From the NCBI GenBank assembly GCA_001931875.2, contig MSJH02000773.1:83550-147549 (forward strand): a stretch of DNA of 64,000 bases, given 5' to 3'. Below are positions 23,027 to 64,000 of the stretch, one piece after another (the first letter of the stretch is position 1; the number at the start of each line of letters is the position of its first letter). The position numbers and the translations under genes are program-made. This DNA is from Byssochlamys sp. IMV 00236 (lineage: Eukaryota > Ascomycota > Eurotiomycetes > Eurotiales > Thermoascaceae). Under the pieces are notes generated by a model, which saw nothing but the letters and a program-made list of their open reading frames with translations, was not told where the DNA came from and made no database searches.

Positions 23027-24550
23027 TTACGCCTCGACGGTGATCTTGACCTTCTTCTCGGGGGGCGGAATGACTTTGTCTTCTGCCTCACCCTTCAGGC
23101 TGGGAAGCTCTTTGACAGCTTGCTCAATGATGCTTAAGGCGGTCTTGATCTCTTCCTCAGTAATAACCAACGGGGGTGCCAGGCGGATGATGTTCTGGTG
23201 AGTCGGTTTGGCCTGGCAGAAATCAGTAACGGGCTTCCAAGAGTTTATCGGTGAGTTGCGGGACAAAAGACTTACCAGCAAACCCTTCTCCTTCATCAAC
23301 ATGCACAGATCCCATGCAGTGTGTCCACCAGTCTGGCTTTCATCGATAACGATGGCGTTGAGCAGACCCTTTCCGCGAATAGTCTGAATCACCGGGCTCT
23401 GCAGTGCCTTCAGTCCGTCGCGGAAGAGCTGTCCAAGCCTCTCTGCGTTTTCAACCATGTTCTCGTCTCTGACGATCTCGAGAGCTCGAATGGCAACAGC
23501 ACATCCGAGAGGGTTACCGCCGTACGTCGAACCGTGCGTGCCGGGCTCGACCGTAAGCATGACATCCTTGCGGCCAAGGACACACGAGACTGGGTACATG
23601 CCGCCTGAGATGGCCTTGCCCAGCAGAACGAGGTCAGGCTTGATGCCACTCCATTCATGGCAGAGGAGCTTTCCAGTACGGGCAATTCCGGTCTGGATCT
23701 CATCACAGATCAAGAGGGCATTGTACTCGTCACACAGCTTCCTGGCTTCCTTCAGATAGTCTTCATCCGGCACGACAATACCAGCTTCACCCTGGATCGG
23801 TTCCACCAAGAATGCTGCAAGGTTCGAACCGGCCTTCTCGAAGGCTTCCCGGAGAACAGCCTTGTCATTGAAAGTGATAGGCTTATCCGTGCCAGGAATC
23901 GTGGAACCGATGTTGGGAAGGTAGGGGCCGTAGTTGTCGCGCGATTCGGGATCAGACGACATGGAGATCGCTGCGAACTAGCAGAGCCTCAGTATACCAA
24001 CTAGTGTACGTTTATCTGCTCTTGGATCATATCTTACCGTTCGCCCGTGGAAGTTGTCTGCTGCACTCAGCACCACCGCCTGGTTCTCTGGGATCCCCTT
24101 CACCTTGTAACCCCACTTTCTGGCGATCTTGATACCAGTCTCGACAGCTTCAGCCCCCGTGTTCATCGGCATGACCATGTCGAATCCGAAGAACTTGGTG
24201 ACGAATTCCGCAAACTTGGGGAAGACGTCATTGTAGAAAGCTCGCGAGCTCAGCGTGAGCTTGGAAGCCTGATCTGTCAGAGCCTTGACGAGCTCGGGGT
24301 GGCAGTGACCCTGGTTCACAGCAGAGTAGGCTGACAGGAAATCGAGGTAGTGACGGCCCTCTGGATCCCATACGGACGTGCCAGAGGCGCGAGCGAAGAC
24401 GACTGGAAGGGGGTGGTAGTTGTGAGCTGCATACTCCTTCTCCGCCGTAATGGCAGCTTCCGTGGAGGCAGCATGGTAGTTGGAGGCCTTGTCCGAGGCG
24501 GTGGATTTGAGGCCAGCCGGCTGCGACCCAGACGTTGCAATTGGAGACAT
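23027..24550 (-). CDS. otaA: Ornithine aminotransferase (ornithine-oxo-acid transaminase)
   Basis: Three exons: 24550-24038, 23977-23276, 23212-23027, 466 aa. This class III PLP aminotransferase converts ornithine plus 2-oxoglutarate to glutamate-5-semialdehyde plus glutamate, linking arginine breakdown to proline. Visible landmarks are [16 protein letters not shown], the cofactor-contact [28 protein letters not shown] across the first junction, the PLP aspartate region [16 protein letters not shown], and the Schiff-base lysine in [14 protein letters not shown]. Also present is [15 protein letters not shown]. There is no mitochondrial leader, in keeping with cytosolic fungal enzymes (Car2/OtaA). 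Intron 2 is 63 nt, a multiple of three, and has no in-frame stop, so retention would insert 21 residues. The N-terminus and length fit the family. Confidence 0.95.
23213..23275 (-). other. 63-nt stop-free, frame-preserving intron in ornithine aminotransferase
   Basis: It starts GTAAGT and ends TGCCAG with a CTGAT branch-like element. Splicing gives KGLL joined to [15 protein letters not shown], as in family members. Retention keeps the frame open. Confidence 0.75.
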
Positions 24551-25157
24551 GCTGGCGGCAGCACAGGTCGGTGATGATAAGATCTGGTCGATTGAGGTTA
24601 TACTCGAGATGAAGGGCGGATAGTGATGATCGTCCCACGTCAGCGGGGAAGTAGAGGAGTTTTGAGACAGAATAATGATCTCAGTCAGGAGGATAGGAAG
24701 AAAAGAACGGAACGGTCACCCCGACGCGCAGAAGTGGACTGTTGTCCATTCCGCTGGACGGCGAAAAGTCTTTTCATGGCGTCCATATCGACTAGACCTC
24801 TAAGTGCAGGTCTATCCGCGATGCCTCCAGACTGTAATCCTCGGAGGGGCCGCACCGGTTATGATCCACCGCTAACGAGAAGCCTTGACACATTCGCGGA
24901 GATGGTTTCCAATTGCGCCTCGTGCTATTCGTCGCCTGAGAACCTGATCCAGAGTCCTTGTATTCCAAGTCTCAGTCGTGAGGCCAACCAGAATAATAAT
25001 ATAATAATAACATAACTGGACCTTGACCGCGTGCCCGTTCATACACGACGTTAGCGCCGCCACCCCGTGTTGTTGCTGGTGTCGATCTCCGCGGCCAACC
25101 TTTGCATTCCGCTCTGGATTTGTGTCCTCATTGGAATCGCTATGAGCGCGCGAGATC
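24551..25157. promoter_or_regulatory. Shared upstream region of ornithine aminotransferase and GPI mannosyltransferase
   Basis: About 600 bp between two divergent genes, presumably holding both promoters. No specific binding site was recognised. Confidence 0.4.
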
Positions 25158-27653: not shown

Positions 27654-28425
27654 ACTGATACTGGGAGATAGCGAGCCCGTGCGCTGTTCCATTTATATAT
27701 GTCTGAATTTTGTATGTGGCAAACCTACCTCAACTGGTTAATGTAGACGCGTGGAGGTCAGATACTCAGGACATCGGCATCTAGAAGTAAATAGACAGGA
27801 GTACATATTCATCTAATTAATTTTGCTTTTATGACAAGAAAAGGACTTTCCATTCCTTCGAGCAAGACTAGAGTTTTAGTATGTTGAATCTTGCTATAGA
27901 TTAGTTATACTCTGAACTACCGCTGCTGAATCAACAGCAGCAATTGGCTTTTGGATGGCTTTGTCATTACAGATCTATGTGCGGATTGAGAAAAGAGCAG
28001 TGGGCTTATGGACTTGGTATGAAATTGACAGTATAAAATTGACCACAAGAGCGATTCGGCTCCCAGGAACATTGTTGTCTCCGAGAGGAAGAGCCTTATC
28101 CTTCCTGTTATCCCTTCGCACTAGCACATCACTGGTAACTCATTGCCACTCTCAACATCGCGCGACGTTTTTCCCTAAGGAAAGGAAGCCAGCTATAATC
28201 AGAGTCACCAGGTTTGATCACAGACAGGTTTATTGCAACCGAAGATTGATGATCCCATGTCAATAGACCTTTCCCGACCAGGCGTTGACACTCTGGCCGG
28301 AGATTTGAGCAGTGTTCTGCGGAAACTACGATCGAATGATATATAGCGTCGAGGTTCATATATTTTGCATTGTACATTCACTGGTACCAAACATCAATAT
28401 GCAACTATTCAATACAACCAGGGTC
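27654..28425. other. Intergenic region between convergent genes
   Basis: About 770 bp between the 3' ends of the GPI mannosyltransferase and aspartate kinase genes. No gene is supported; it forms the left border of the amino-acid cluster. Confidence 0.5.
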
Positions 28426-30497
28426 CTAGTAAAAGTCAATATAATGATGATCATAGAGGGAATTCAAAGGACGCGAAAAAGGGTCCCCACCTTTAATAAA
28501 GTTATTTTCTTGTTCTACATGAGTCGGGATCTGCAGTGCCCGTGCATGAACGACATTGATTGCCTGCATGGCATCTTCAGCCTTCACAACAAATCTACAA
28601 ATAGCAAATAGGCAAACATTAGCTGGGGCCAGGATGATATATGTAAGTTGGAGTGGAAAGCACATACGAAATGTTTATTTCGCTTGCCCCTTGGCTGATG
28701 AGGTAAATATTGATTTTTGCGGATGCGAGTGCCGAAAATATCTCGTCTTGGGTTTGACCCGCGTCAGTTGAGTGCTTTCCTTTACTTATCGAATCTTTTG
28801 CAGACGAGCCTTACTTGCAGTGCCAACCATATTGCGCATTTTCTGGCCAATAACAGAGACAATATTCATGTTTTCCAATATCGTTACCTGTTTTCATCAA
28901 TGAGCCACCATCGATTTGGGATAGAAAAGAGCAGAAGGACGAATACTGACCGATCCAAATTCCTGCAGATCAAGTACTAATTTATTGGTGATGGTCGATG
29001 CTTGGATTGCAAGACTGACGTTTCGCTCACTCGTGGTGACCAAATCTGGAACTATGCCATTTCGTTCTAGCTGACAGAATACAGAAGCCAGGAAACCTTG
29101 CGACTTGGTGGTCCGGCTAGATGTGACGTTGATGAGAATGAGACCTTCTTTGCTTGTAATGGCAGTTGGACGTCGCCTGCTTCGAGATTGCCCATGGTAT
29201 CCGTTGGAAAGCATAAAAACATCGTCTGGCGGACTCTCCTGCACTGTTTCCTTCACCTGGTGATCTGTCTCTGGAGTGGATGGGTAGATCACGGTTCCTG
29301 ACCCGCTGGGATTAAGTACGTTTTTCAGTCTCAAGACTATCTCCGACTTATGTAGTTGTTCCATTGTGAGGGGATGGATGACCTGCGCGAAAACGAGGCG
29401 TAGTGTTAGAGCTCAAGCCGTATGCTATTCCTGATGATGAAAGACCCTGCTTTCCGGACTTACCTCGCTGCCAAAAAAGGTCAATTCTGCAGCTTCTTCT
29501 GCGGTGACAGTCGCCAGCACTCGCGCCGATGGTACTTTTCTGGGATCCGCGGTAAATATTCCATCAACTTCTTTCCAAATTTGGTATTCCATGGCAGCCA
29601 GGCCTGCTGCACACATTGCGCCACAGAGGTCAGAATACCCTCTACCAACACACCGGAGGAGTGAGTGAGGCATGAGGCCGAAATAACCTGGACACATATG
29701 CCATGGTGAGTTGATAAATAATAAATCTACATATCGTCTAAGAGGGTATACATACCAGTGATGACAGGCACCGCATCTGTAGATTCAGATACTACTGACC
29801 CAATCCTGCGTGAGAGTCGATGGTAGAATTCTGTTCCAAGGCGTTCGAACTGCGATTCCTGTTCTGGCAGAGATCCGCCGAACACTTCTGCAACAATGTT
29901 ATCCAGGTTGATGACTCGAGCAGGAATGCCCTCCTTGATGGTCAACGCAGCCGCCACGATCTTGCACGCCAATCTCTCTCCTAATGAGAGCACGCGGTCT
30001 TTGGAGCGTGCAGACAGATCTCCCACGACCTGGAGACAGGGAAAAAACAATTAGTACAAAGCAAAAAAAGACAGTTACCACTGCCCTTTCGAACCAAGAC
30101 GTACATGGGCTGCAAGAAGGAATCTGCGAATTTCTTCGCAGTCATTGACCACACTCAGTGTGGTCTCACTGAGGAGCAGGTCGCTAGTATCGTTGGAATA
30201 GGCCCGAAATGACTGCAATTTATCCAGATGGGCATCGCGGATACTATCAATTGTCGCATTGATATGACCGATTGATTCCACTCCGACGATCTCGGCACAT
30301 CGAAGACAGTCGAGAAGCAGACTTGTCGTGCCGCTGGCCTTCGTGGTACCGGATAATGCAGAACAGACGACGGCGACATTGTATGTTTTCAGATACGAGG
30401 GAATGATCGTCCCACACACTTTGTCCAGCAATTTTCCGAGGCTCGTACCTCCATATTTCTGGACAATCCATGGCTTTGGGTCAGGGCGAATGGTCAT
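28426..30497 (-). CDS. Aspartate kinase (Hom3-type)
   Basis: Seven exons: 30497-30105, 30029-29756, 29687-29464, 29382-28951, 28887-28815, 28746-28668, 28594-28426, 547 aa; all phases close. It phosphorylates L-aspartate, the first step to homoserine, methionine and threonine. Landmarks are the substrate-binding start WIVQKYGGTSLGK, ARSKDRVLSLGERLACK, CVGRGYSDLCGAMCAAGLAA, the nucleotide loop EVDGIFTADPRKVPSARVL, FFGSEVIHPLTMEQ, and two C-terminal ACT-type regions (SVIGQKMRNMVGTA; NIYLISQGASEINISFVVKA). Compared with housekeeping fungal enzymes the N-terminal stretch VVCSALSGTTKASGTTSLLLD is diverged (the family normally has CSARS), suggesting a paralogue. It is divergent to the acetate-transporter gene and one of seven contiguous cluster genes. 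Confidence 0.92.
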
Positions 30498-31047
30498 CTT
30501 GGCTTCGTGAAGGCTACTGCTTAGACTCTCAGTCGACGAATGATCGGATGGCTTATCGCATGTGAAGGAATATAAACAAAAGCCAACAAGATGCAGCCGA
30601 GTGAGGTAAGTTATCACAGATTTGAGACTTTTGCTTTCCTAAGTCCTAGAAAAACCAAAAGAAAGAAGTAAATGTCGATGACGTAGAAACGAACTGGTTC
30701 CAGAGCCCTATCGAGATCACGGTGTTAGAAACTCTTATCTACATACTTCACCCTGCCCGAACTGCAAAGACCGAGGTCACCGATTCGGGCTTCGTATCAA
30801 AGGATCGCCGTGTGCAGCCAAGAATCGATCCATGAACTGAACAGCCAACTATCTATAACGACAACAGTGTATTTTGGCTATCAAACTCTGGCGATCTGCA
30901 CGTTATGATAGGCTGACCTGAGCGGGCAATGCTATATGTAGAGCACCTTCTCCAACGAAACAATACTTTCTGTCTATTGAACCAAGGATCACGACAACTT
31001 AAAATAGACCGAAAAAGTTATACAACTGTAGACAGCCCAAAGCAATA
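30498..31047. promoter_or_regulatory. Divergent promoter between aspartate kinase and GPR1/FUN34 transporter
   Basis: A 550-bp intergenic region serves two divergently transcribed genes. A TATA-like TATATTCC (minus strand, near 30570) sits about 75 bp upstream of the kinase start. A shared region favours co-regulation. Confidence 0.45.
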
Positions 31048-32203
31048 ATGCATTCGACGGACATGTGCGAATCCAAGTCTGCCGAGCTCCCAGTGCAGAA
31101 TTTGGAGATTAAATTCGGCCTCAACAAGTCCTTCGCGAATCCAACGCCAATGTGAGTCTGTTCCCGGACCTGCTACAGAAGCTCATCAAGCCTCACTAAC
31201 GTGTATACAAGTGCGGTGTTAGGCCTTGCGATAAGTGTTTCGACGCTTGGCTGCGATCTCATGGGATGGAGAGGAGCTGGTGGAGATGGCGCTGCGTCAA
31301 CGTAGGTTTGCTTGCCCTTTCGCACTCGCAAATTCCTATGACCTTGATGGTTGCAGAACTGATCAATTGTTTTCTGCAGAGGAGCTTATTTCTTCATGGG
31401 TGGACTGCTTATGATTCTGGGCGGGTTTCTTGAGTTTATCTTGGGAAACACGTTCACATTCTTTCTATTCTGTGGCTACGGTGAGTGGCTTCAATATATT
31501 CACAGGCTTGTGAGTACTAATATGACGGACTAATCGCTTCAATGTGGACAGGAGGGTGGTGGTTGAGTTTCGGTGCAACGCTCCAGCCTTTCTACGGAGC
31601 GTATGGAGCTTATTCGCCCGATGTCTCTGACCCTTCGAAAGGACTTCAGACGACTGGATTCAATGCGAGCTTTGGTAGGGAGCGTCTCTTAATTTCTTCT
31701 CTCGCACACCTTCTCTCGAGGCGGAATATCCTACTCCTATTTCCAGCGAGGGAGACAGATGGCCAACAACCTTGTTGCTAACGATCAATACCAGCATTCC
31801 TGCTCGTATTTATGGGAATTTTCTCCCTCGCTTGTTTCCTAGGCTCATTGAAAGTCCATATTGCGCTTGCCGTGGTGGAGCTCAGTCTCACCATAGTCTT
31901 CGCGCTGCTGGCGGGTGCTTTCTGGGAGGTCGCTATGGGAAATGCCAGTGTTGCCTCGAACCTCCAGACGGTAAGTACAGTGACTTTCCTCGTTTTGATT
32001 CACTGTGTGTCCGAATATAAATCTAATTTTGCTGCCATTTATGATAGGCCGGCGGAGCTTTTCTTTTCGTCGCGGGCATTGCGTCCTGGTATATCCTCTT
32101 CTCGCTTACCCTGAGCTCGGTGGGATTTCCCTTTACACTTCCCGTGGGCGACCTCAGCCGTTTCCTCACGAAGGAAAGAAAGTTTAGTGACGCTTCAGTG
32201 TGA
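31048..32203 (+). CDS. GPR1/FUN34/YaaH family acetate transporter
   Basis: Six exons (first 31048-31151, last ending at the TGA 32201-32203), about 250 aa. After a short hydrophilic N-terminus come the family signature FANPTPIAVLGLAI and six predicted transmembrane helices: AVLGLAISVSTLG, FFMGGLLMILGGFLEFILG, TFFLFCGYGGWWLSFGATL, FLLVFMGIFSLACFLG, VVELSLTIVFALLAG and FLFVAGIASWYILFSL. The block GGWWLSFGATLQPFYGAYGAYS is characteristic. Fungal members (Ady2/AcpA) carry acetate across the plasma membrane, and others affect ammonium export or acetate sensing. Its location inside the O-acetylhomoserine gene group suggests acetate supply or by-product export, since gamma-substitution of O-acetylhomoserine releases acetate; this is inference. 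Introns: GTGAGT-type donors, phases all consistent. Confidence 0.88.
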
Positions 32204-32960
32204 AGTTATGTGGTCCTGGGACCAGATAATTGAAGTAGGCGGGGAAAGACCAAGTAATCTGAAAATTGAACTCGAAGGTGGAGTGGTACGCAAGACGCTG
32301 GTTGAAAAGGAAATTGTGCTGGACGAATACTTTCAAGTCACGCAGTTCGTCTTGTCGAGATAGTCATTCTGGATTCTGATCACGGTTTTGTTCTCGGTAG
32401 AACTATATATAGCTACGATAATAATTGATAATGGTGGATATTCGGGCACTCCACTCCTTGTTTTGTCTGCAAATAACAAGTATAACTATTTCAACATAGA
32501 TAACCTAGAGACATATGAATTGCCTAACAGACAGCCATAAACTGCGAACTTAATTTGTATGGCGACTCTTTCGAGATTTCCATTGCTTTCTCCAATGTCT
32601 GTGTCTGAAGGGACCACTTCAAGTCAGTATGGAGGGCTGAGTTAAAGAGTACAGATACATATGGTGCTCTTATCCTCCCAGGGGTTGTCTTGATTCTGCG
32701 AACTGGATCATCTTTGGAACAATTGGTGCCTGTCTCATAGCTACTTCATCACTCATTGCCTTCTCAAAGACGTATCGTATCTCTTCGATATTCCTATCAA
32801 ATATTTACAATACCACAACAGCCCAAGAATAAAAGCTTCTTTCAAATTTCTCCTATATGAATCTCCAGGTTCGACCATGCCCCCACAAACCTGGCATATA
32901 AGTTTCTGTATGAATATTCAAAGATATGGAAATTTCGTCTGTCTTCTACCTCGATAGCAT
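32204..32960. other. Intergenic region between convergent genes
   Basis: About 750 bp between the 3' ends of the transporter and the semialdehyde dehydrogenase. No gene is supported. Confidence 0.5.
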
Positions 32961-34191
32961 TCACACGTATCCCCTGATCGCGGCAATTTCGGCGTTCAGA
33001 ATAGACGAACCCGCAGCACCAATGACGGTATTGTGTGAGAGGCAGACGAAACGGATATCAAAGTAGCCGCCATTGCCACTTCGGACCCGGCCCACACTGA
33101 CTGTATAGCCGTTAGATATGTTGCGGTCCAGTCTTGGCTGCGGTCGATCAGGCTCATCGAAGACTCTTATTGTCTGCTCTGGTGCCGAGTGAGCACCCAG
33201 CCTATAGGCCTCGGATTGGTGCTCTTGTAACGCCTTCTTGACTTGCTCAGCAGTTGGCGGCGGTCTGTTCTTGAAGCGTAGCGACACAAATGCCATATGG
33301 CCATCTGTAACCCCGACTCGGGTGCAAGTAGCGCTCACCCGTAGACCACTCTGCTCCTCGAACGCGGTGGAATCACCGTTTATAGAACCGAGGATCTTCT
33401 GCGCCTCGTTCTCAAGCTTGTCTTCCTCGCCACTAATATATGGGATTACATTATCCACGATATCCAGAGAAGGGACACCAGGATAACCAGCTCCCGAGAT
33501 AGCTTGTTCGGTGAAGACTTCCACTTCCTCAACAGGACCAAACTTGGCTTGCAGAGCGGCGAACGGAATAACGATTCCAATGACGGCACAGTTCGAATTG
33601 CATACTATGAAGCCTTTCTTTAAACCAAGCTCCTTGCGCTGATGTGGGATAATCTCCAAGTGCGACGGATTCACGGTTGGAACAACGAGTGGCACAAGGG
33701 GATGTTTGCGGTAGTTCTTTGCATTCGAGAAAATTGGAATTTCAGCCTTGGCAAATTCCATCTCTAGATAATAATCAGTGAATAAGATCTTTGCGTTCTG
33801 TAGACTTACATGGGAAGTAAAAAGAGACAAGAAAACGAATGGGGGAGATACCGATATCGCCCGCAACATCGCTATCCAAACCGGAGAATACCAGGTCACA
33901 ATCGCTGAACTCTGTAGCTTTGCAGGCTTGGATGACAAGTTCGCCCAACTCTTTCGACATGGGGACCGATTGCTTCCATATGACCGCATCTTTATACTTC
34001 TTGCCCGCCGAGCGAGACGAAGCCCCGACCTTGTGTAATACGAGAAATGGGTGATGCGCGAGAAGAAGGATGAATCGCTGGCCGACGGCGCCGGTCGCTC
34101 CAAGGACACCTTGTATAGTCAGCGATGGGTCATAAGACTCTCTTAGAGGTTCAGACCTACCGCACTTCTTCTTTGTGACTGCAGGTGACAT
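32961..34191 (-). CDS. Aspartate-semialdehyde dehydrogenase (Hom2-type)
   Basis: Three exons: 34191-34161, 34109-33852, 33763-32961, 363 aa. It reduces aspartyl phosphate to aspartate-4-semialdehyde with NADPH, the step after aspartate kinase. The nucleotide-binding start [20 protein letters not shown] is split by intron 1. The phosphate-side motif [18 protein letters not shown] crosses intron 2. The catalytic cysteine sits in [11 protein letters not shown], and [30 protein letters not shown] and [18 protein letters not shown] follow as in fungal enzymes. The C-terminus [18 protein letters not shown] is intact. Nothing indicates loss of function. It is probably a second copy beside a housekeeping gene elsewhere, given its cluster setting. 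Confidence 0.94.
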
Positions 34192-34874
34192 AGTATATAG
34201 ATGGTTTTGGCTGTAGAAGATTGCCTTGTTATCAAAGATATTCGAGTCTCTCTACCTATTGAAAGTGCCAGTAAGGAAAGCGCAAAACCAAATGGCAAGG
34301 ATCGCTATCCAATACAACTTTTATGTATAAAAAAGGCAAACAACGCTCGTGTCAAAAGAGTTACACACCAACGCCGCTTTCGCATCTAGCGGATAGCTGG
34401 GGTAAAGGCGACGGAGAATATCACCGGCCCCAAAGCTGAGATGCCGTTGCTCATGCTGTAAAAGGAATAGCTAGGAATAATTGATAGTGGTTATGAGCAA
34501 GTTTTATTACTGTATCTCTATTTCTTTTGTTTTTATTCGTGTTTCGATCGCATCCTAACTTCTTTCGTTCTACCTCGGTTTCTGAGATAGTTTCTTTCCA
34601 TTAACCCTCTCAAGGGACGATCTGATGTCATTCATATTCCTATTAGCCCCGTATCCGTGCGGCTTATCAGTTGGCGCCATACTACAATAGAGCGTATAGT
34701 CGCAAATCACCAAACACCGCGACTCTGATAAGCAAGAGTCCAAATCCCGCATATCCCGGCGATTCTTCTCCAGGAGAGAGATTAGTTCTCCCGACTGAAC
34801 CCACAATCACCGACACTTCTATCTTTTGATTGAAACTGAAGAGAGTATCAGTCAAGCTACTTGTGTGAGGCCCA
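34192..34874. promoter_or_regulatory. Divergent upstream region of semialdehyde dehydrogenase and Zn2Cys6 regulator
   Basis: About 680 bp between divergent starts, likely carrying both promoters. No clear site was identified. Confidence 0.4.
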
Positions 34875-37505
34875 ATGGACAAACAAACCTCTGAGAAGCC
34901 GAAACGGAGCGATACTCGGAAAGGACCAATTGCTCCGCCGGTCAAGTTAGCCTGCCTCGCTTGGTACGCTTTAGTTTCTCGAGTGCTAAGTTTAGCGGAT
35001 GTAGAGTATTGCTCGGAAACTGACTTTCCGGTGAAGTAGGCGCTCACGGATACGTTGCGACGGCAAAGAAATATGTACAAATGTATGTTGATCTGAATCA
35101 AAAATAATAATAACAACCATTATAAGTGACGCGCGCATAACTAATCGATCTCTAGTGCCTGAGAAAGGGACAAGAATGTGCATATACGCCTAGTAGACGC
35201 GGAGGCGCTCGAACGAGCCGCCGTTTCACGCAAAACGGCATGCAGAAGAAAAGCGAGAATAAACAGGCTCGACTCCGTAAGTACTCGGATGGAAAACAAA
35301 AAAATGAAGGAAGAAGAATAGAGAACACTTGTTTGATCCGTGCGGCTAATGGTTTCCCGCAGTCCCAATCGAACAATACATTGAACCAGGGGCCGGACTT
35401 AGCAACCTCGATGACAATTTTCAGGACAGCGACTTGATATTTGACAGCATTTTTCACCATGATCAAGATGCTATTATGTCCGACTTTCAGCCACTTCGAC
35501 CAGTATCACCGGTGGTGCGGGCATACCAGAGTGATCGTGACGTGTAAGCGTTCTGCTGCCGTGGGCCAGGCGTTCAACAAAGGTCTAACATTTTACTGTA
35601 GACTGGAAGCATACTATGTTTACATTCATCCATATTTCCCTATACTGCCTCCCCCAAATTCGATACCCACTGATCGTCCCATTGCCGTTTCTGAAAGCGA
35701 ACAGAATCTCAACAATGCTGATTACGAGCCTTCGTCACCTCTCAGCCTCGGCATCTTGAGTATATTATCGTTGATTCCTCATCCAGATGACCCGAACCCG
35801 GGTAGTGAAGAGGCTGTCTTATTCCGCAGGAATTATGCCGAGTGTCTGGCCCAGTCAGCTTTGGAAAGCATCAACATTGAAACTGAAGTACCGGCGTCCT
35901 CGACGTCGCCTGCGCAGGTTCTTTCTGAAGTCTCAGATGTATATCAGCGCGTTCCTTTCCACCAGAATGTTCCAGTCGAGTTAGAGAGCATAATCGCCCT
36001 TTCTATCTTGAGCATATATGAATACGCACAGCGAGGAAACATCAAAAGGATGCGCCAGCGAGCCGGACAGGCTATCATGGCAGCTATGGATATGTGTCTT
36101 CATAGTGAGCCAGAAATGGAGAAACCGGATGAATTCACAGAAGCAAGGCGCCGCGCTTGGTGGATGACGGTAGGCTCTCATCCCCAGCCCTGGGATAAAT
36201 CTCGCGGCTAACACCAATCGACAGTACATCTGTGTATGTCAGGGATCAATTGTCAGTGTCACTGTAGGTCGGCCGCTCTCTATGTCTCGTCTATTGTTAT
36301 CTGCGGCTAATCAAGAATGATCGAGGAACCGACAATATCTATTCATGACCCGAGATTTACTACTCCATATCCTACCATTGGTGCAGACTCGACTGTAAGC
36401 ATGGCTCTAACCGACTTTCATCCGTTTTGACCACCCTCACTCACACTCCAAATACCAGGCATGGTCCTTCTTTATCGATACCCAACGTGCGATCGTTTCT
36501 GCAACAGTGGCTGTTGTCGAATTAAACAAAGCTCTGAAAGCGGGAACTGGCCTTCAATCGAAGCTGGAGCGCAACCGCGAGCTTGACAATGAAATGAAGC
36601 TGCTAGCTGCCAAAGCCGACGCGTATCTCCCACCACATCGCAGTACGAGCTTGCTAGATCCGGAAGAGTCCATAGTTGCAGATTGCTTGAAATTAATAGG
36701 GCGTATCAAAGTGAACAGGTTGGCAACCCCTGATTCTGCTCTTGAAGACGGAGGAACTTTTGCTCACACTCTCTCCAGCGCAAGGATCAAACTCCATCGA
36801 TACAGTGCTTTCTTCGACCTTCCACTGTTCTCGCAGAAACACTGCGACTTGCAGCCATCAAAGATGCGCGAGGATGGTTCAGGATCAGGGAAGTCTCCGA
36901 TATGCTTATGCTCTACCTCGACCGCGTCCCTCCCTCTGCCACCCGGCTTGTCCTGGAAAGATATGAGCTTGCCAGATACGCCCTCTTCCCTTGCATCAGA
37001 TATGGGCTTGGGTGTTAGGGACCTTCTCGGACTTGGAAATCAGATGTCGACCAAGATTTGTCTCAAATCGGCGTTGAACATTGCTCAGTGCTTTGACAGA
37101 CTCCCATATCCTAACCCCTATGGCTCGCTTGGTGCATCCATTTCTCTAACATCGAGGAATCCAGCATGGAATACGGCTCTGCCTCGCACCATGCCGTCCT
37201 TTGCATGCTGTGCAATGCAGAGTGGTTATTCGATGCTGATGGTCCGTCACAAAGTAGAGCTTATGCACCCCAAGAATTCTACGACCAATCCCACAGTCGC
37301 CAAATTATACAGCCAGCTGCACGAGGGTCTACAATCTGTCGTTGGGGCTCTCGAGAATTATTCCATAGCATTCGAAGCGCTCACGGGTATGAGGGGTACG
37401 TGAAATGAACCATTACCCTCCTGGACACTAAAAATCTTACTGATTGGACTTTCAGATCAAATAAAAATGATGATAGGCTCTTTTGATCCCCCTAGCGAGA
37501 GATAG
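34875..37505 (+). CDS. Zn2Cys6 fungal transcription factor (Ctf1-like middle region)
   Basis: Nine exons: 34875-34963, 35037-35082, 35156-35276, 35363-35543, 35602-36169, 36225-36263, 36326-36394, 36459-37395, 37456-37505; the total of 2,100 nt gives 699 aa. Exons 1-3 encode the zinc cluster ACLACRRSRIRCDGKEIC, then TNCLRKGQEC, matching C-x2-C-x6-C-x5-C-x2-C-x6-C exactly, followed by TPSRRGGAR. After an acidic linker comes the fungal-specific regulatory domain: LEAYYVYIHPYFPILPPP, AWWMT, ISIHDPRFTTPYPT, RIKLHRYSAFFDLPLF and PSFACCAMQSGYSMLM. These resemble the cutinase-regulator (Ctf1) group. A basic cluster precedes the linker. It lies in the middle of the aspartate/O-acetylhomoserine genes and is the obvious candidate for their local regulator. 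Confidence 0.88.
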
Positions 37506-37994
37506 GACACGAGGGTCTGTGGAGCAGAGGGGAACTAGTTTGGTGTTGTGCACTACTGAGGCAAGAAAGGGAACGGGAGCCACTATGGAGTCAGTAGTGG
37601 ACTCGAATGTTAGTTTTATTTCTACAGTCCATATACTATCTTGTACCCACGGGCATCTGCAATTGAGCAGATTAGTTTAGTCTGAACGTAATCCATCGTG
37701 TCTCTTGCTCCGCGTGTTTGTCTTATTCCTCTCTTCAAGGCGGTCGACGCCAGCGGGCAGATGCAGCGAGAACCTTATACTGCATACCTATATCCGTGAA
37801 GAAAACGCTGTAGGAACTGTAGTCGCTGCAGGTATCCATAGAATCCGTAAGGGCTTTATGGTAGTCGTCCAATTCAACTTATCGGATGAGAAATTCCCGG
37901 GATGTTGATGGGTTACCCATTCCTATTTCCATGCAAGAAGCATCGCCTTCTGTTATCTTTCGTTGAACTAGACGGAGTTTCCAGATGGCCACAA

Positions 37995-38072
37995 GATCAG
38001 TGTTGTTATGTGGTTAAACCGATCGGTGTTTGGCTCGGGTGTTTGTGATCGGTGTTCTAAAGCCGGTGTTTG
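37995..38072. repeat. Three 26-bp tandem units (GATCRGTGTT) upstream of the sulfhydrylase gene
   Basis: GATCAGTGTT at 37995, GATCGGTGTT at 38021 and GATCGGTGTT at 38047 are exactly 26 bp apart. Each unit also has a half-unit about 13 bp on, and GGTGTT occurs at 38025, 38038, 38051 and 38065. The array ends about 230 bp before the start codon at 38303. Confidence 0.7.
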
Positions 38073-38088
38073 GGCAGATAATTACCTA

Positions 38089-38106
38089 TCGATGTTGAGA
38101 CATCGA
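38089..38106. promoter_or_regulatory. Inverted repeat TCGATGT/ACATCGA with 4-nt spacer
   Basis: Perfect 7-bp arms separated by TGAG, about 200 bp upstream of the sulfhydrylase start. It may be a binding site for a dimeric factor; unproven. Confidence 0.35.
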
Positions 38107-38302
38107 GATAACTCACACGAGTTAGATAAGGGACTTGGTTTATTTCTTTACTGAACTCATTGTTATAGAAGGATATATTATCCCAGATGATTCCGCAAAT
38201 ATCAGCACGTTTAACACATTAAGACAATCATCTTCTCTCTCACGATACTAGCTCGGTAGCTACTTGCCATCCTTCTTCCGACAAGAAACTACTTCAGCCT
38301 CG

Positions 38303-39976
<1,674 letters not shown>

Positions 39977-40834
39977 AGACTTTAGACTTTAGACTTTTCT
40001 TTTCTTTTTTTTTTTTTCTATCGCAGTAATGCGATTTTCTGGTTTTGTCTTCTAGTTTCCAATTTATGGTTGTGAATACATCATCTATAGTATACTACAA
40101 TGTCCATATCCATAACGTGTCTGCTCACGAGATTTTAGAAATTTTAGTTAAGCAAACAACATGTTATTTCGTAAGTCCAAGATATGGGGTTATTCTTTTG
40201 AGGTTAAACATGATATTCCATTGTTTTCCCCAGTAGATCATATCATTTTTACGTTTCCTAATTTTGACAATAGAATAAGGCAAGAATATTCACCGAGTAT
40301 GATCCCATTTGTGCAATTCTTGGTTAATATATGTCGGCGCACGAAGGCTATTACATAATGACCTGTCTTATTATCTGTTTGTATCAGGCTGTTGACATAG
40401 AACCTGCTAGATCCGTGTAATTTGGAGAGAAGTATGGGGTGTACTAGAGCAAAGAAAGCAACCTAGCGATCTACTAGGTGGTTCGGTCATGATCTTAGTT
40501 CCGCGCCATTTAAAGTTCGAGAGTATATATTGAACTGTCGAAACAAGGAGAATGCCTTGATCGATTTAATTTTAAGAGGTTCGATAATGTACTGTACACC
40601 GGCTTATACTCCGGGACCAATCGCATACTGAGTGGAATTATGAAATTATTGTTATCCATTATTACCAATGAGATTTTTTGATTCACTGGGTTGCAGTCTA
40701 CCGTTCGCTTCCCGTCTCGTTCACTTAACACGCATCAACTGCTCCGCATTTAGTGCCTTGCAATGAAAATGGATTTTCGAAAATGTCAAAATGCAATGCG
40801 CTGAGTTCCATTTGTTCTCTATTTAAGATCCCCC
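39977..40834. other. Intergenic region between convergent genes, AT-rich
   Basis: About 860 bp between the 3' ends of the sulfhydrylase and nitrilase genes. It begins with a long pyrimidine tract (39990-40019). No gene is supported. Confidence 0.5.
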
Positions 40835-42343
40835 TTACGCCTCTTTAAACGACACATTTACGCCTGGTTTTGTGTTGACGGTCAAGGAGCTAGAAAAGAG
40901 ACGTCAGTTTCTCAGCAGAACACTCGCCAAAGGTAGATAGATGGATTTCTTACAAGATATCCGGCCGTGAATAGCTACCGACAGGGTCGAAGTCCAACTG
41001 CGCGAGGCAGATTTTGATTAGTCCCGAGAAAAATCTCTAACGCCCTTGGATTGAAACTCACCCGAGCCTCTACGATATCGGACTTGTTCAACGTTGCGAG
41101 TATTATTTCCTCTTTGTCCCACACTGGCTGTGAGACAAAGGTGCCAAGAGGCCCAACCACGCAGGAACCGCCATGACTCAGGATGTCGTCTGGCTCCCAT
41201 CGAGACCCATCGGGCTTGCGGTCGTGGTGCTCCGGTGTAAATGGGGGGTAGTCAGAAGGAAAATCGGATACCTTGCGAAGAAAAGTTCGATTAGCGAGGG
41301 ATCTCTTTTCTCCCTGTTTCTTAAAAGAAGAAAAGATTTAAGGGAGGAGGCATGAAAAGATTACAAACCTTGCAGAATTGGTTTACTGAAATAACAAAGC
41401 ATCGCCCTTCTTTCGCAATATGTTGCATTGTTGCGATCCAGCTTGGCAGGTCGTCGGCATTGGGGGCGATGTATATTCTGACCATTGAGTAAGGTTGCGG
41501 TCTTGCGAGGTCAAGTGATAAAAAGGGGGAAGGGGACTCACTCGATCCCTTGTTGGTATAATGCCAGGCGTGCAGCAGGCATGTAATTCTCCCAGCTAAG
41601 TGTATTGTCAGAATGAGCCATTTAATCATCGACAAAGAAAAAGAAAAAGATTGGTTTTGTTACCAGATGAGTCCTCCGACTTTGCCAATATCAGTGTCGA
41701 CGACATCCAACCCGTCACCGGCGCCTCTACCCCAAACCAACCGTTCAGCCGCCGTTGGGATCAACTAAGAATCCATCAATTAATATGTCAAAGCTAACAG
41801 AAGGTATATAGGTAGGTATTGTATACTTTGCGATGTCGGCTCAAGACGGCACCGTCGCGACCCAGAAGCAACGCTGTGCAGTAGAGAGTCCCTCCATCTT
41901 TTTCTATAATTCCCACTGAAAGGTAAACGTTGTTTTCCTTGGCTATCTCACATAACTGATCCATTTCTACCGAAGGAATCGTAACAGCTGAGTTGTAGTA
42001 TTTAGCATACCACTTGCGGCCTGCTTCCGGTATTAGACAGGCAAACAATTTCACGATAGAACGCGGGGTCCACACGAACCTCGAGGCTCTCGCGCGCCAA
42101 TTGTTGCATCAAAAGCGTACCTCCATGGATAGGCCGACAGGAAACCCTCCCTAAGACCCCTTAGCTGCCAATTTTCGTAAAATTCGAGGGGGCGAAAACG
42201 CACGGGAAAACGACGAGGTTAGCTCCTGCTGCTGCTGCTTTCGAGGTAAACTCGGCCACTTTCTGTATGCTTTTTGGCAAATCAAATGAGACAGGAGCAG
42301 CTTGGATAGCTGCAACCACGATGCTGTCGGACGATTGAGACAT
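40835..42343 (-). CDS. Nitrilase (carbon-nitrogen hydrolase)
   Basis: Assembled from eight short exons, about 350 aa, starting [17 protein letters not shown] (an upstream ATG at 42391 is possible). The catalytic triad is complete once spliced. Glu is in [19 protein letters not shown], split by intron 1 after TTCCC. Lys is in [21 protein letters not shown]. Cys is in [19 protein letters not shown]. Later blocks are [29 protein letters not shown] and [24 protein letters not shown]. The last are [14 protein letters not shown] and [12 protein letters not shown], then a stop at 40835. These mark a true nitrilase (nitrile to acid plus ammonia) rather than an amidase or cyanide hydratase, though substrates cannot be read from sequence. 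It lies between the sulfhydrylase and the homoserine acetyltransferase, and is divergent to the latter. Confidence 0.9.
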
Positions 42344-42837
42344 GTTGTTCGGGGTGGATTTCGTCTGTGTCGGGCGCCGATATCCTGTCATATGGAAAAT
42401 ATAAGTGAGTACTAGAGATGGCTATGGTATGCTATTTTAAATAGCACGCGAAACGAAGGAAAGACAGGAGAAGAAACAAGAGACTTGAAAATACTGGGAA
42501 TGCCGGTAAAAGGTGCAAATAGTTTTCCATTGGCTCCGCGGTGATACTGATAGATATCTCGGGGCTTATCAGGAACGAAGATCAACTAAACCCGATGAAC
42601 GGGCTTTGCAAGGCGAATCAGCAAACGCCGAATGAACAGCCCAGTATTACGTATCGCTAATTGTTCCATTCTATACAAACTGTTAACAATGGGGATATTC
42701 GCCCTTGTACAACATGAAATAAAACTTAAGAAATATGCAGTGGAAGGTATTCTGCCATCCACGCCATCACCCATCTACGACGTTGCTCTTAGAAGACAGC
42801 TATTATGGCTATCGGCAAGTTTTAGATCCTCCCAGAT
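42344..42837. promoter_or_regulatory. Divergent upstream region of nitrilase and homoserine O-acetyltransferase
   Basis: About 490 bp between two divergent starts; likely shared control. The acetyltransferase start may lie further upstream in this region if it has a short first exon. Confidence 0.4.
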
Positions 42838-44267
42838 ATGCTTTCTGCTTTGACATACAGGACTAATATCAGCTTAATAGCACTTGACTACAAACCAGAG
42901 CAGCCAAATCCTTTTACAGAGCTCATCTCTGGTCAGCGCATCGCACTGATCCCGTCTTTAACACTTGAGTCCGGGCATGTGCTGAAGTCGTGCCAGGTGG
43001 CCTACAAGACCTGGGGCCAGCTCAATTCAACCCGTGACAATGTGCTGGTCATCTGTCACGCATTATCTGGGAGCAGTGATGTTGCAGATTGGTGGGCGCC
43101 TCTCATGGGCCCAGGAAAAGCCTTCGACTATACCCGGTTCTTTATCTTTTGTGGAAATGCGCTCGGATCGCCATACGGAAGCTCATCGCCCTTGACAATA
43201 AATGTTGACACTGGACTGCCCTATGGCCCTGAATTCCCACCCACCAGTATTAGGGACGATGTAATGTGCGTACTGAAATGGCTATCTCCGAGTATACTAT
43301 ACACTGGACTTTCATTGCTAACTTCTTCCGCGGAAGAGCCCAGAAGTTAGTCCTCGATGCATTGGGCGTTTCGTCCGTCGCTGCAGTGATTGGAGGGTCC
43401 ATGGGAGGCATGACAACGATCGAGTGGCCTCTCTGTACGCCGCCCGGCTTCGTTAGGACAATTATCCCTATTGGAACCTCAGTTGCTCAGAGCGCTTGGG
43501 GGATTTCATGGTCCGAGGTCCAGAGGAGATGTATTCGCTCAGATCCTCTGTTCCGTGACGGTTACTATGAACCAAACCAGCAGCCGACATCGGGTCTTGC
43601 GACAGCGCGCATGGTGGCTATGTTAACCTACCGTTCAGGGGAGAGTTTCGAGAAGCGATTCGGCAGAAAACCGTCCAGCCAAACCAAGTGTTTAACACCA
43701 CCTGCAGAGCCAGCAGCATGTAACGGCTCATCATCTAAACTGCCAGTGAAACCACCATCACCGGCCTTGGGCAACTTGACTATGAGGCAGTTTTCTGCGC
43801 AGGACTATCTCGACTACCAAGGAGCTAAGTTTCTGCGTCGCTTTGACGCAAACTGCTATTTACACTTGATCCATAAAATGGATATGCACGATATTCGGCG
43901 TGGTCGAGTCTCCGAAGACTGTTATTCCTGTTCGAATGGCGAGGGAACGCTTCCAGACAACATCACGGCCAAAGTACTGTCTCGCGTACCGCCGCATGCC
44001 TTGGTCATTGGAATCGATTCTGATGTTCTTTTTCTCCCTGACCAACAATACCACCTGGCTGCTTGTCTTCCAGACGCCACCTTGACGATGCTGAAGTCGT
44101 CAGACGGACACGATGCATTTCTGCTTGAGTTCGAGCAGTTGAATCATTTGATTATTGACAGGCTGAAATGGCTGTTCCCAAACATGTACGAAGGGTTCAC
44201 GGAGAGAGTAGCTGAGGTTGAAATGCCCAATTCGACGAATAAAATCAGTGTGGGTGAGCTGGACTGA
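42838..44267 (+). CDS. Homoserine O-acetyltransferase (Met2-type)
   Basis: Two exons: 42838-43269 and 43344-44267, 451 aa. This alpha/beta-hydrolase-fold enzyme acetylates homoserine with acetyl-CoA to give O-acetylhomoserine, the substrate of the neighbouring PLP enzyme. Landmarks are PNPFTELISGQRIALIPS, LESGHVLKSCQVAYKTWG, VICHALSGSSDVADWW, FFIFCGNALGSPYGSSSP, the nucleophile serine in AVIGGSMGGMTTIEWPL, and IPIGTSVAQSAWGISW. DYLDYQGAKFLRRFDANCYLHL follows, with Asp in VIGIDSDVLF and His in SSDGHDAFLLEFEQL completing the triad. The intron joins RDDVMC to KLVLDALGVSS. A Ser/Pro insert (PPAEPAACNGSSSKLPVKPP) is typical of fungal Met2. The extreme N-terminus is uncertain. Confidence 0.92.
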
Positions 44268-61353: not shown

Positions 61354-63223
61354 CTAGATGGGTCCATCTGTCACACAACCATGGCTGGCATCGCTGACCA
61401 GGGTGGAATACTTCTTTAAAGTTCCCTTCTGGTATCTGAGTGGAGGTGCTTTCCACTCCTTTCTTCTTTTATCCAGTTCTTCAGTCGGGATCTCCAGATT
61501 AACCACTCTTTCCTCAGCATCAATCACGATCTTATCACCGTCTCGCGCCAGCGCAATCGGGCCTCCCTCCATTGCTTCGGGCACAATATGACCGATCAAA
61601 AATCCATGGGAACCGCCAGAGAATCTCCCGTCTGTGAGCAGCGCGACGTCCTGGCCAAGTCCAGCGCCCATAATGGCCGCGCTGGGTTTAAGCATCTCAG
61701 GCATTCCCGGACCACCCTTGGGACCTTCGTACCGGATGATGACGACCGTCTTCTCGCCCTTCTTGATCTCCCCTCGCTCAAGGGATTCGATGAATGCGTC
61801 TTCGTAGTCGTAGCACTTGGCTGTGCCCTCGAACCGTAGGCCTTCCTTGCCAGTAATCTTGCCCACGGAACCACCTGGGGCCAGCGATCCGCGGAGGATC
61901 TGGAGATGGCCGGATGGTTTGATGGGGTTGCTCAGGGGTCGGATGATGTCCTGATCAGCAGGGAAATCGGGCCACGAGGCTACATTCTCCTTCATTGTTT
62001 TGCCGGTGATGGTGATTCCTGAGCCGTCGATCAGGCCTTCCTTTAGAAGGTATCTGAGGATAGCTGGTGTGCCGCCAATCTTGTATAAATCGTGCATAAC
62101 ATACTTTCCAGATGGCTTCAAATCAGCCAGGAATGGCGTCTTATCGGACACTGCTTGGAAGTCATCGATAGTCAACTTGATGCCGACAGAGTCAGCAATA
62201 GCAATTAGATGCAGAACAGCGTTTGTACTGCCACCCAAGATGTTCACCACAATCATTGCATTCTCAAATGCTTGACGTGTCATGACATCCCTGGGCTTAA
62301 TGTCTTCCTTGAGCATATTCTTAACCACCTCGCCAATGTTCTCACATTCGACCAACTTCTTGGGATCGTCTGCCGGACAACTACTGCTCCCGGGAACTGT
62401 CATACCCATCGTCTCAATGGCCGTCGCCAGCGTATTGGCCGTGTACATGCCACCACAGGCACCTCTGCCAGGGCAAGCATTGCGAATGATATCGAACCGC
62501 TCTGTCTCGTCGATCTGGCCTGTGATATACTGCCCATACGACTGGAACGCACTGACCAGGTCCAACTTTTGACCCTTTGCACTGCATCCGGGCTTAATGC
62601 TACCGCCATAGATCATGACACTAGGCCGGTTCGTGCGTCCCATTGCCATCAACACCCCAGGCATATTCTTATCGCAACCCGGCAGCGACACGTTCGCATC
62701 ATACCACTGGGCATTCATTACAGTCTCAATGCCATCAGCGATGATCTCACGACTCTGCAAGCTGTATCGCATTCCTTTTGTGCCCATACTGATCCCATCA
62801 GACACCCCAACGGAGTTGAATCGCATAGGGACCAGACCCGCCCGATGGATAGAATCGCGCACGATCCCAGAAAGGTCGTGCAGGTGCATGTTGCATGGGT
62901 TACCCTCGAACCATACAGAGGAGATACCGACCTGCGGCTTCGACATATCCTCCTCTGTTAGGCCGGTCGCATACAGCATTGCTTGTGAGGCACCCTGAGA
63001 TTTGGGTTGTGTTATTGTCGATGAGATTCTGTTGAGGCCATCGTCGGACTTATAACGGCGCGAGGTAGGCAGAAGGCGTCTGACGATTAATGTCAGGTTA
63101 GCATTTTTTCGCGATTCTGAGGAGAGATTCGAAACATTACGATAGGAGATTCTCGTACATGCTGTTGAACTGAGCTCGTCGGCTTGATGCCAGAGCTCTA
63201 GCTCTGATATGCGTCGCGAGCAT
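61354..63223 (-). CDS. Dihydroxy-acid dehydratase (Ilv3-type, mitochondrial)
   Basis: Two exons: 63223-63159 and 63079-61354, 596 aa. It dehydrates dihydroxy-isovalerate and dihydroxy-methylvalerate in valine, isoleucine and leucine synthesis. Exon 1 gives a basic, Ser/Arg-rich leader ([19 protein letters not shown]) typical of mitochondrial import. Cluster-binding cysteines are in [35 protein letters not shown] and [17 protein letters not shown]. The rest ([52 protein letters not shown]) is intact. The [14 protein letters not shown] loop reads [19 protein letters not shown]. Aspergilli often carry several copies, so this may be a paralogue; fungal clusters making dehydratase inhibitors can carry one as self-resistance, but no such biosynthetic gene is seen here. 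Confidence 0.94.
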
Positions 63224-64000
63224 AGTTCGTGCTTGCGGATACGTGCACGGGGACAGTGTTTAAGGGGAAGAAAATTGATGAAGAAAAAAAGAAAGAGGAA
63301 AAAGGTTTACTGTGTTCAAGAACCAAGCCTGTAAGAAGACTCATGGCCACACAGCCGTGACTAAGATGACAGGGCTCAATAACGTAGGATAATTGATGTG
63401 TTGCTGGGTTGTTGCCCTCATTCCGGAGTTGCGACCCAACTCCGGCCTCCGCCCTGAACAAGCTCGGTGGTGGCCGGACTGGATCTACTTAGCAGCTTGA
63501 TCTTCGCCCCCATGCAGGGGTTGTCGACTCATACACCAATTGTATAACTGGTTATTCACTTCCTTCCTATTATTAAGATTATCCACCACTGCAGTGCGTC
63601 GCGCCGCCATTTTATATAGGATCTAGACAATCTTGACGATCTGTAGAATAAGGATCCGGTGCGATCAAGCACCTGGATAAGATTTCAGATTCACGTATTT
63701 CAAGTCTACTGAGTGCTTATTGCATCTCAATTAATTATGTGTATTCGAATAATATGCATACACCCCGGGCGCAGAAAGTGGATGATCATAACTAATTTGG
63801 GTCGACCTCTATTCGAACTCCGCTGTGTCGAAATAAACCGCAATATAGCAGTGCTCATGTTGGTGAGACTTTTGAGAGATGCAGATTTCCTCCCCTGGAA
63901 AGATCATCATTGCTACAGCTAGCGTCCGCAGCAAAGGCACGTTTGGATCCTCTTCAGGTGGGTCTCATTAAGATCAATGATCGAGGCTATAATCTGAATA
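63224..64000. other. Upstream region of dihydroxy-acid dehydratase to window edge
   Basis: About 780 bp; no gene is supported. The left part presumably holds the dehydratase promoter. Confidence 0.45.

What the first reader, a model, noticed from the sequence alone, without database searches (positions are those of the whole stretch)
28426..44267. Seven-gene aspartate-to-O-acetylhomoserine cluster with its own regulator, acetate transporter and nitrilase
Aspartate kinase, GPR1/FUN34 acetate transporter, aspartate-semialdehyde dehydrogenase, Zn2Cys6 regulator, O-acetylhomoserine PLP enzyme, nitrilase and homoserine O-acetyltransferase sit side by side with no unrelated gene between them. All appear intact by eye. 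These steps are normally scattered in fungi. Established precedent: the fusaric acid cluster (FUB3 aspartate kinase, FUB5 homoserine acetyltransferase, FUB7 PLP enzyme) and the loline cluster (LolA aspartate-kinase-like, LolC PLP enzyme) bring such genes together to make an O-acetylhomoserine-derived metabolite. Here the set is more complete (it adds the semialdehyde dehydrogenase), while no PKS, NRPS or terpene enzyme is visible and homoserine dehydrogenase is absent. I infer a dedicated pathway to a non-protein amino acid or related small molecule.
Basis: partly seen in the sequence, partly recalled or inferred. Interest (0 to 1): 0.8.

Follow-up and report, generated by a model that had tools for sequence, protein, structure and literature searches.

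The report
Seven-gene fungal acetylhomoserine and nitrilase cluster
A mould carries, side by side and separate from other copies in its genome, a set of genes that turn aspartate into acetylhomoserine together with an enzyme that splits nitriles, and part of this pairing is kept in distant fungi, which points to a dedicated pathway, perhaps for taming cyanide.

Summary
Seven intact, spliced genes lie at 28409-44267: aspartate kinase (AK), GPR1/FUN34 transporter, aspartate-semialdehyde dehydrogenase (ASADH), Zn2Cys6 regulator, O-acetylhomoserine (OAH) PLP enzyme, nitrilase (NIT), homoserine acetyltransferase (MET2). Other copies of the four pathway enzymes exist elsewhere in the genome. AK and PLP fall in clades far from those copies; FUB7 groups with one of them, not with this PLP enzyme. 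The decisive new fact is linkage: in 33 of 35 organisms named in both homologue lists, AK and NIT relatives have contigs of identical length; in two, gene numbers are adjacent. NIT is NIT4-like (catalytic tetrad, Arg95, Asp317 kept), but position 224 is Asp in 99 of 101 clade members. Cluster promoters are rich in GATA-type nitrogen-regulator sites (23 seen, 10 expected); promoters of four ordinary copies have 0-1 each. I favour a nitrogen-regulated cyanide/nitrile pathway: OAH plus HCN gives 2-amino-4-cyanobutyrate, which NIT hydrolyses, with acetate and ammonium leaving. No enzyme activity was tested; no PLP-clade hit was named Colletotrichum, although that genus keeps the AK-NIT pair.

The parts
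28409..30497 (-). Aspartate kinase (AK), 531 aa, 8 exons; far from the genome's other AK on C742 (43% identity)
   Evidence: exact exon placement; Pfam AA_kinase and ACT on orthologue P0241
30498..31047 (.). Divergent promoter AK/GPR1, 7 HGATAR sites
31048..32203 (+). GPR1/FUN34/YaaH (ATO-type) transporter, 249 aa, 6 exons
   Evidence: PF01184 100.8 bits; the 6 other genome matches are partial, 32-50% identical
32961..34191 (-). Aspartate-semialdehyde dehydrogenase, 363 aa, 3 exons; looks like a young duplicate, 82% to C827 over its longer segment
34192..34874 (.). Divergent promoter ASADH/regulator, 6 HGATAR sites
34875..37505 (+). Zn2Cys6 regulator, 679 aa, 10 exons; canonical C-x2-C-x6-C-x5-C-x2-C-x6-C
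   Evidence: exon 2 starts at 35037
37506..38302 (.). Upstream region of the PLP gene, 7 HGATAR sites
38303..39976 (+). O-acetylhomoserine PLP enzyme (OAH sulfhydrylase superfamily), 474 aa, 4 exons; distinct clade
40835..42343 (-). NIT4-like nitrilase, 325 aa, 9 exons; catalytic Glu/Lys/Glu/Cys, Arg95 and Asp317 equivalents kept, Asp at position 224
42344..42837 (.). Divergent promoter NIT/MET2, 3 HGATAR sites
42838..44267 (+). Homoserine O-acetyltransferase (MetX family), 452 aa, 2 exons

Best explanation
A dedicated, nitrogen-regulated metabolic cluster that makes O-acetylhomoserine (OAH) from aspartate and spends it on fixing cyanide. Proposed steps: AK and ASADH make aspartate semialdehyde; the homoserine dehydrogenase encoded elsewhere gives homoserine; MET2 makes OAH; the PLP enzyme replaces acetate by cyanide, giving 2-amino-4-cyanobutyrate (gamma-cyano-alpha-aminobutyrate); the NIT4-like nitrilase hydrolyses the nitrile to glutamate (and/or glutamine), releasing ammonium; the GPR1/ATO transporter exports acetate or ammonium; the Zn2Cys6 regulator and a GATA factor switch the set on. 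A close variant with the same purpose: NIT acts on beta-cyanoalanine made from cysteine and HCN, giving aspartate, while OAH recaptures the released sulfide. INFERRED: the nucleophile (cyanide), the nitrile substrate, transport direction and regulation.
For: NIT's best solved relative is Arabidopsis NIT4: 303 bits against 164 for the next. Catalytic tetrad, Arg95 and Asp317 kept; [quoted passage not shown] Fungal NIT4-like enzymes NitTv1 and NitAb had their highest specific activities on beta-cyanoalanine (PMC7503981, abstract, passages and part 1 of the discussion). Partial precedent: Nit4 beside duplicate amino-acid genes in a bacterial cluster raised on cyanide-containing residue (PMC8567248, passages). 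23 HGATAR sites in 2,524 bp of cluster promoters against 10.2 expected (2 of 2000 shuffles reach it); four ordinary copies have 0, 0, 1, 1 in 600 bp. Acetate is a by-product of gamma-replacement and ammonium of nitrile hydrolysis, which fits an ATO-type transporter (recalled chemistry).
Against: No activity was tested. The PLP clade is not a constant partner: no row named Colletotrichum is among the 120 PLP hits listed although that genus has many AK and NIT rows; PLP and NIT share a contig length in 5 of 6 shared organisms, PLP and AK in 4 of 6. NIT differs from NIT4 at two of three named specificity positions (169 Leu to Ala, 224 Ser to Asp). No beta-cyanoalanine synthase was noticed in the cluster. 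None of the 80 best bacterial NIT loci had an OAH-enzyme, AK, ASADH or MetX match at E<=1e-6 in the flanks held (up to 8 kb a side, many shorter). In the bacterial precedent cyanide itself is assimilated through a cyanohydrin and NitC, not through Nit4. The GATA test was made after a word scan that itself was not significant (8 of 100 shuffles reached it), and several other window genes also have 4-5 sites.
Confidence: 0.4

Rival explanations
1. OAH-derived non-protein amino acid or small natural product: the PLP enzyme joins OAH to an unknown carbon or nitrogen nucleophile (as FUB7 and LolC do, recalled), and NIT trims a nitrile or amide of the product.
For: Copies apart from the ordinary ones, with a regulator and a transporter beside them; several Colletotrichum AK relatives carry the source name 'FUB3'; the PLP enzyme forms its own clade with conserved differences from the others.
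Against: No PKS or NRPS match on the contig; PLP is not a FUB7 orthologue (50% identity; FUB7 is 72% identical to the genome's copy C834). A nitrilase is an odd constant partner for such a product.
Confidence: 0.3
2. A backup sulfur/methionine module: extra OAH supply and OAH sulfhydrylase for growth under sulfur or cyanide stress, with the nitrilase a neighbour of separate function.
For: PLP scores above the OAH/OAS sulfhydrylase subfamily cut-off; ASADH is 82% identical to another genomic copy.
Against: AK-NIT contig lengths agree in 33 of 35 shared organisms, so NIT is not a chance neighbour; other OAH-type enzymes exist in the genome.
Confidence: 0.15
3. Plant-nitrile use: NIT detoxifies plant beta-cyanoalanine or arylaliphatic nitriles, and AK draws the aspartate formed into the homoserine branch.
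For: NIT4-like residues; NitTv1 and NitAb also take arylaliphatic nitriles (PMC7503981); many NIT-clade genera are plant-associated (list; ecology recalled). Needs no PLP partner, so it fits Colletotrichum.
Against: Does not by itself explain cluster copies of MET2 and PLP in this fungus.
Confidence: 0.15

Closest known systems
Fusaric acid (FUB) cluster of Fusarium
   Same: Dedicated aspartate kinase (FUB3), homoserine acetyltransferase (FUB5) and OAH PLP enzyme (FUB7) (functions recalled and from the finding)
   Different: No PKS match on this contig; PLP enzyme is not a FUB7 orthologue; nitrilase, ASADH and GPR1 transporter added. FUB3 and FUB5 sequences were not at hand for a tree
Loline (LOL) cluster of Epichloe
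   Same: AK-like LolA and OAH PLP enzyme LolC (recalled)
   Different: LOL sequences were not compared; other LOL genes were not searched for
Plant and fungal NIT4-type nitrilases (AtNIT4; NitTv1, NitAb)
   Same: 45% identity to AtNIT4 (141 of 314), catalytic tetrad, Arg95 and Asp317
   Different: Asp at 224, Ala at 169; linkage to an aspartate kinase. NitTv1 and NitAb sequences were not compared
cio cluster of Pseudomonas pseudoalcaligenes CECT5344
   Same: Nit4 nitrilase grouped with amino-acid biosynthesis genes (CysM3, DapA, MetF, SerC, HisC, ArgD) and raised on cyanide-containing residue (PMC8567248, passages)
   Different: Bacterial; other amino-acid branches; holds a terminal oxidase (CioA); that strain assimilates cyanide through NitC, and its authors doubt a 3-cyanoalanine route from cyanide
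Bacterial gamma-cyano-alpha-aminobutyrate formation (Chromobacterium violaceum; OAH sulfhydrylase of Bacillus stearothermophilus CN3)
   Same: Cyanide fixed into gamma-cyano-alpha-aminobutyrate (Brysk and Ressler 1970 seen only as a reference inside PMC13320846; the Bacillus enzyme is recalled)
   Different: No gene cluster with AK and nitrilase known to me (recalled)

Membership tests
Fusaric acid (FUB) cluster | PKS (FUB1) in the cluster | tested here: not met
   None of 27 listed ketoacyl-synthase matches in the genome lies on the window's contig
Fusaric acid (FUB) cluster | FUB7 orthologue | tested here: not met
   Window PLP 49.8% to FUB7; FUB7 71.9% to own C834 and sister to it, support 98
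Fusaric acid (FUB) cluster | FUB3 / FUB5 orthologues | not tested
   Sequences not among the returned proteins; only source names 'FUB3' on Colletotrichum AK relatives
Loline (LOL) cluster | LolC-type PLP enzyme with LolD-type decarboxylase | not tested
   No LOL sequences at hand
NIT4-type nitrilase | Catalytic Glu-Lys-Glu-Cys | tested here: met
NIT4-type nitrilase | Lid arginine (Arg95) with Asp317 | tested here: met
   Arg in window and 92 of 101 clade rows (8 gaps, 1 Gly); Asp in window and 93 of 101
NIT4-type nitrilase | Leu169 and Ser224 specificity residues | tested here: not met
   Ala and Asp in the window; Ala in 85 and Asp in 99 of 101 clade rows
NIT4-type nitrilase | Activity on beta-cyanoalanine | not testable with these tools
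   needs enzyme assay
Dedicated metabolic gene cluster | Other genomic copies of the pathway enzymes exist | tested here: met
Dedicated metabolic gene cluster | Linkage kept across species | tested here: met
Dedicated metabolic gene cluster | Co-expression | not testable with these tools
   no expression data
Starship cargo | DUF3435 captain near the cluster | tested here: not met
   The three genome matches found are pieces of one stop-riddled stretch on C640

The most novel reading that the evidence does not exclude
A fungal cyanide-assimilation gene cluster of a kind I found undescribed: aspartate-derived O-acetylhomoserine is used as a carbon acceptor for cyanide, giving 2-amino-4-cyanobutyrate, which a subtype of NIT4-like nitrilase with Asp at position 224 turns into glutamate, under GATA-factor nitrogen control, with the AK-NIT pair kept across several classes of Pezizomycotina.
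Probability: 0.27. Interest if true: 0.8.

Novelty: new variant of a known kind. Interest (0 to 1): 0.58.

Why it matters
Fungal cyanide handling is mostly discussed through cyanide hydratase and rhodanese (recalled). A conserved cluster that joins the aspartate family pathway to a NIT4-like nitrilase would explain why these ascomycetes keep a spare aspartate kinase, give an assayable function to a nitrilase clade of about a hundred listed sequences, and show an OAH-type enzyme used for something other than sulfur and alkaloid chemistry. Five full-text searches aimed at such a link (12 papers listed in all) showed no title or abstract start that describes this cluster; the library lacks most subscription journals.

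Tried and rejected
Rejected: (1) 'These are the only or housekeeping genes': other copies found for the four enzymes. (2) 'PLP is FUB7'. (3) 'The regulator is broken' (my own misreading, CLAW): the acceptor that starts exon 2 at 35037 restores the zinc cluster. (4) Starship cargo. (5) Bacterial neighbourhoods of NIT relatives as a clue: 0 of 80 loci (the best 80 of 590) with a partner gene at E<=1e-6; three PLP matches at E 0.008-0.83 only; the NIT positive control matched 80 of 80. (6) Shared CGG/CCG dyads between promoters: no spacing in more than 2 of 4; shared 8-mers: 4 seen, 1.26 expected, 8 of 100 shuffles reach it. (7) One search used the wrong family (PF12482) and says nothing here. 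(8) Repeats in 26-47 kb: nothing notable.

Rows dropped before counts: one search used 93 of 120 NIT rows, 116 of 120 AK rows and 18 of the first 31 PLP rows; the rest bear no usable organism name or are bacterial. AK row P0290 has a cut name. 'Same contig' is inferred from identical longest-contig lengths, not from reading contigs; some are megabases long. One more NIT-AK pair of equal length lies between two differently named Colletotrichum strains and is not counted. One counted NIT row (P0231, C. noveboracense) is a badly modelled protein ranked below the 101-row clade. Trees used 36 of 120 PLP hits, 39 of 120 AK hits, 38 of 120 NIT hits. The three protein searches scored only the about 8000 candidates sharing most words and listed 120 each.
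Full report
WHAT IS THERE. The window is part of contig C770 of a 47.4-Mb, 840-contig assembly, a fungus by its genes. Its nearest named relatives in the protein searches are Paecilomyces variotii: AK 100% over 96% of the query, NIT 98%, PLP 95%. Seven genes lie between 28409 and 44267. Exact exon placement gave complete proteins with GT-AG introns for seven of seven. The regulator's zinc cluster first read CLAW; the acceptor three bases upstream gives CLACRRSRIRCDGKEICTNCLRKGQEC, the canonical motif, and a Pfam Zn_clus hit of 31.8 bits. The genes are arranged around three divergent promoters (AK/GPR1, ASADH/regulator, NIT/MET2) plus the PLP gene. The left neighbour is a Glyco_transf_22 gene. 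Neither a ketoacyl-synthase nor a condensation-domain match lies on C770 (27 and 33 matches listed elsewhere in the genome).

NOT THE ORDINARY COPIES. Genome searches found other copies: AK on C742 (43% identity), ASADH on C827 (82%) and C139 (56%), MET2-like on C762 (61 and 41% in two segments) and C789 (28%), PLP on C834 (54%), C415 (57%) and more distant ones. C415 and C139 stretches have GC 0.387 and 0.384, against 0.48-0.52 for the seven other paralogue stretches and 0.482 for the window, and may be foreign contigs. Homoserine dehydrogenase (PF03447) has one match in the genome, outside the window. ASADH is the one cluster enzyme that looks like a young copy of an ordinary gene; its nearest solved relative, 5jw6, scores 666 bits against 499 for the next.

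CLADES. In a 41-row tree the window PLP falls in a 22-row clade on a stem of 0.51 (support 100), whose named rows are ascomycetes (taxonomy recalled). FUB7 (PDB 8eqw) is sister to own C834 (support 98), 72% identical to it and 50% to the window enzyme. In a 41-row AK tree the window AK groups with Paecilomyces, Talaromyces stipitatus, Penicillium expansum and Aspergillus cavernicola (support 100), and the 40 rows other than own C742 are parted from it by a path of about 1.9 changes per column. These two quick trees carry SH-aLRT support only. The NIT tree (40 rows, bootstrap and SH-aLRT) shows one fungal clade of 35 rows on a stem of 1.17 (100/100); Paecilomyces with Penicillium canariense, and Rasamsonia with Thermoascus, are separate small groups whose relations are unresolved. 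No tree was made for MET2, ASADH, the transporter or the regulator.

LINKAGE. Protein hits are listed with the length of the longest contig. Some shared contigs are short: C. noveboracense 14 kb, C. falcatum 27 kb, Xylariaceae sp. FL0594 48 kb, Sporothrix curviconia 54 kb; others are megabases. Gene numbers are adjacent in Anthostomella pinea and Xylaria grammica and two apart in C. jinshuiense. PLP and NIT share a contig length in 5 of 6 shared organisms (Lepidopterella on 20 kb, Rasamsonia, Dendryphion, Tricladium, Parahypoxylon), PLP and AK in 4 of 6. In Fusarium kuroshium and F. euwallaceae the AK gene model runs on into an ASADH, so these two genes are probably neighbours there. AK-NIT thus looks like the conserved core, and the seven-gene form here a fuller version. 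No row named Colletotrichum is in the PLP list, so the PLP enzyme seems not to be a constant member.

THE NITRILASE. Its best solved match is Arabidopsis NIT4 (303 bits; next 164). It is identical at 141 of 314 aligned positions and keeps Glu76, Lys163, Glu170, Cys197, Arg95 and Asp317. [quoted passage not shown] The window enzyme has Ala at 169 and Asp at 224; among the 101 clade rows (P0121-P0221) Asp224 is in 99 and Ala169 in 85, while 12 of the 19 next rows have Gly at 224. This fits a small amino-acid nitrile as substrate, with a pocket rim unlike plant NIT4; an Asp there could hold the amino group of a longer substrate (inference). NitTv1 and NitAb, characterised fungal NIT4-like enzymes, were most active on beta-cyanoalanine (PMC7503981: abstract, passages and part 1 of the discussion); no row named Agaricus or Trametes is in my NIT list, so they are not shown to belong to this clade.

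PROMOTERS. A word scan found GATAAGCC in three of four promoters, in itself not significant (8 of 100 shuffles gave as many shared words). I then counted HGATAR, the AreA/NIT2 consensus (recalled): 23 in 2,524 bp; 10.2 expected, 2 of 2000 order-1 shuffles reach it; 15 ORF-free stretches elsewhere in the window average 3.7 per kb, and 0 of 50 overlapping 600-bp windows there reach the cluster's 9.1 per kb. In 600 bp upstream of the copies on C742, C827, C762 and C834 there are 0, 0, 1 and 1; C789 and C801 have 4 each, C613 none; eight other window genes have 0, 0, 0, 1, 5, 2, 4 and 4; the seven cluster genes have 7, 7, 5, 5, 6, 3 and 3, divergent pairs sharing sites. The test was post hoc, and 'upstream' of the other copies is counted from the first matched segment, not from a mapped start.

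MECHANISM. A set that makes OAH, an OAH-type gamma-replacing enzyme, a NIT4-like nitrilase, an acetate/ammonium-type transporter and nitrogen-type promoters fits cyanide fixation: OAH + HCN to 2-amino-4-cyanobutyrate + acetate, then hydrolysis to glutamate and ammonium. A beta-cyanoalanine version (NIT returns aspartate, OAH recaptures sulfide) fits the AK-NIT core equally well and needs no special PLP enzyme. In Pseudomonas pseudoalcaligenes, Nit4 sits with amino-acid genes in the cio cluster, whose products rise on cyanide-containing residue; but that strain assimilates cyanide itself through a cyanohydrin and NitC, and Nit4 serves 3-cyanoalanine when cyanide is present (PMC8567248, passages). 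I give 0.40 to a cyanide/nitrogen function of either kind, 0.30 to an OAH-derived natural product, 0.15 each to sulfur backup and plant-nitrile use.

NOVELTY. Clusters with AK and OAH enzymes are known (fusaric acid, loline; recalled). The pairing with a NIT4-like nitrilase was not described in the titles and abstract starts that my searches listed (some searches listed only the top 25, 15, 15 and 15 of 34, 32, 50 and 218 papers). I rate it a new variant of a known kind.

Noticed in passing
G000 C415:7000-16802 and C139:25000-34999 (L054, L060): Two stretches of GC 0.38-0.39 carrying ordinary metabolic genes in an assembly whose seven other sampled stretches are 0.48-0.52; the 47.4-Mb assembly may hold a foreign, AT-rich organism.
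   Followed up: partly
P0320, P0350, P0359: Fusarium gene models that run aspartate kinase straight into aspartate-semialdehyde dehydrogenase (P0359 only part of it); probably two neighbouring genes joined by the gene caller, but a true fusion is not excluded.
   Followed up: no
window 23027-24715 (-): Ornithine aminotransferase-like frames about 4 kb left of the cluster (by eye).
   Followed up: no
window 61354-63306 (-): Single-frame dihydroxy-acid dehydratase-like gene (by eye); between it and the cluster an MFS frame and an O-methyltransferase frame (Pfam) and further MFS-like frames (by eye).
   Followed up: no
G000 C640:57482-58856: The only DUF3435 (Starship captain type) matches found in the genome, full of stops.
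   Followed up: no
P0244, P0245, P0351: AK relatives in Talaromyces stipitatus, Penicillium expansum and Aspergillus cavernicola have missing or odd segments in their models; the gene may be decaying in some Eurotiales, or the models are poor.
   Followed up: no
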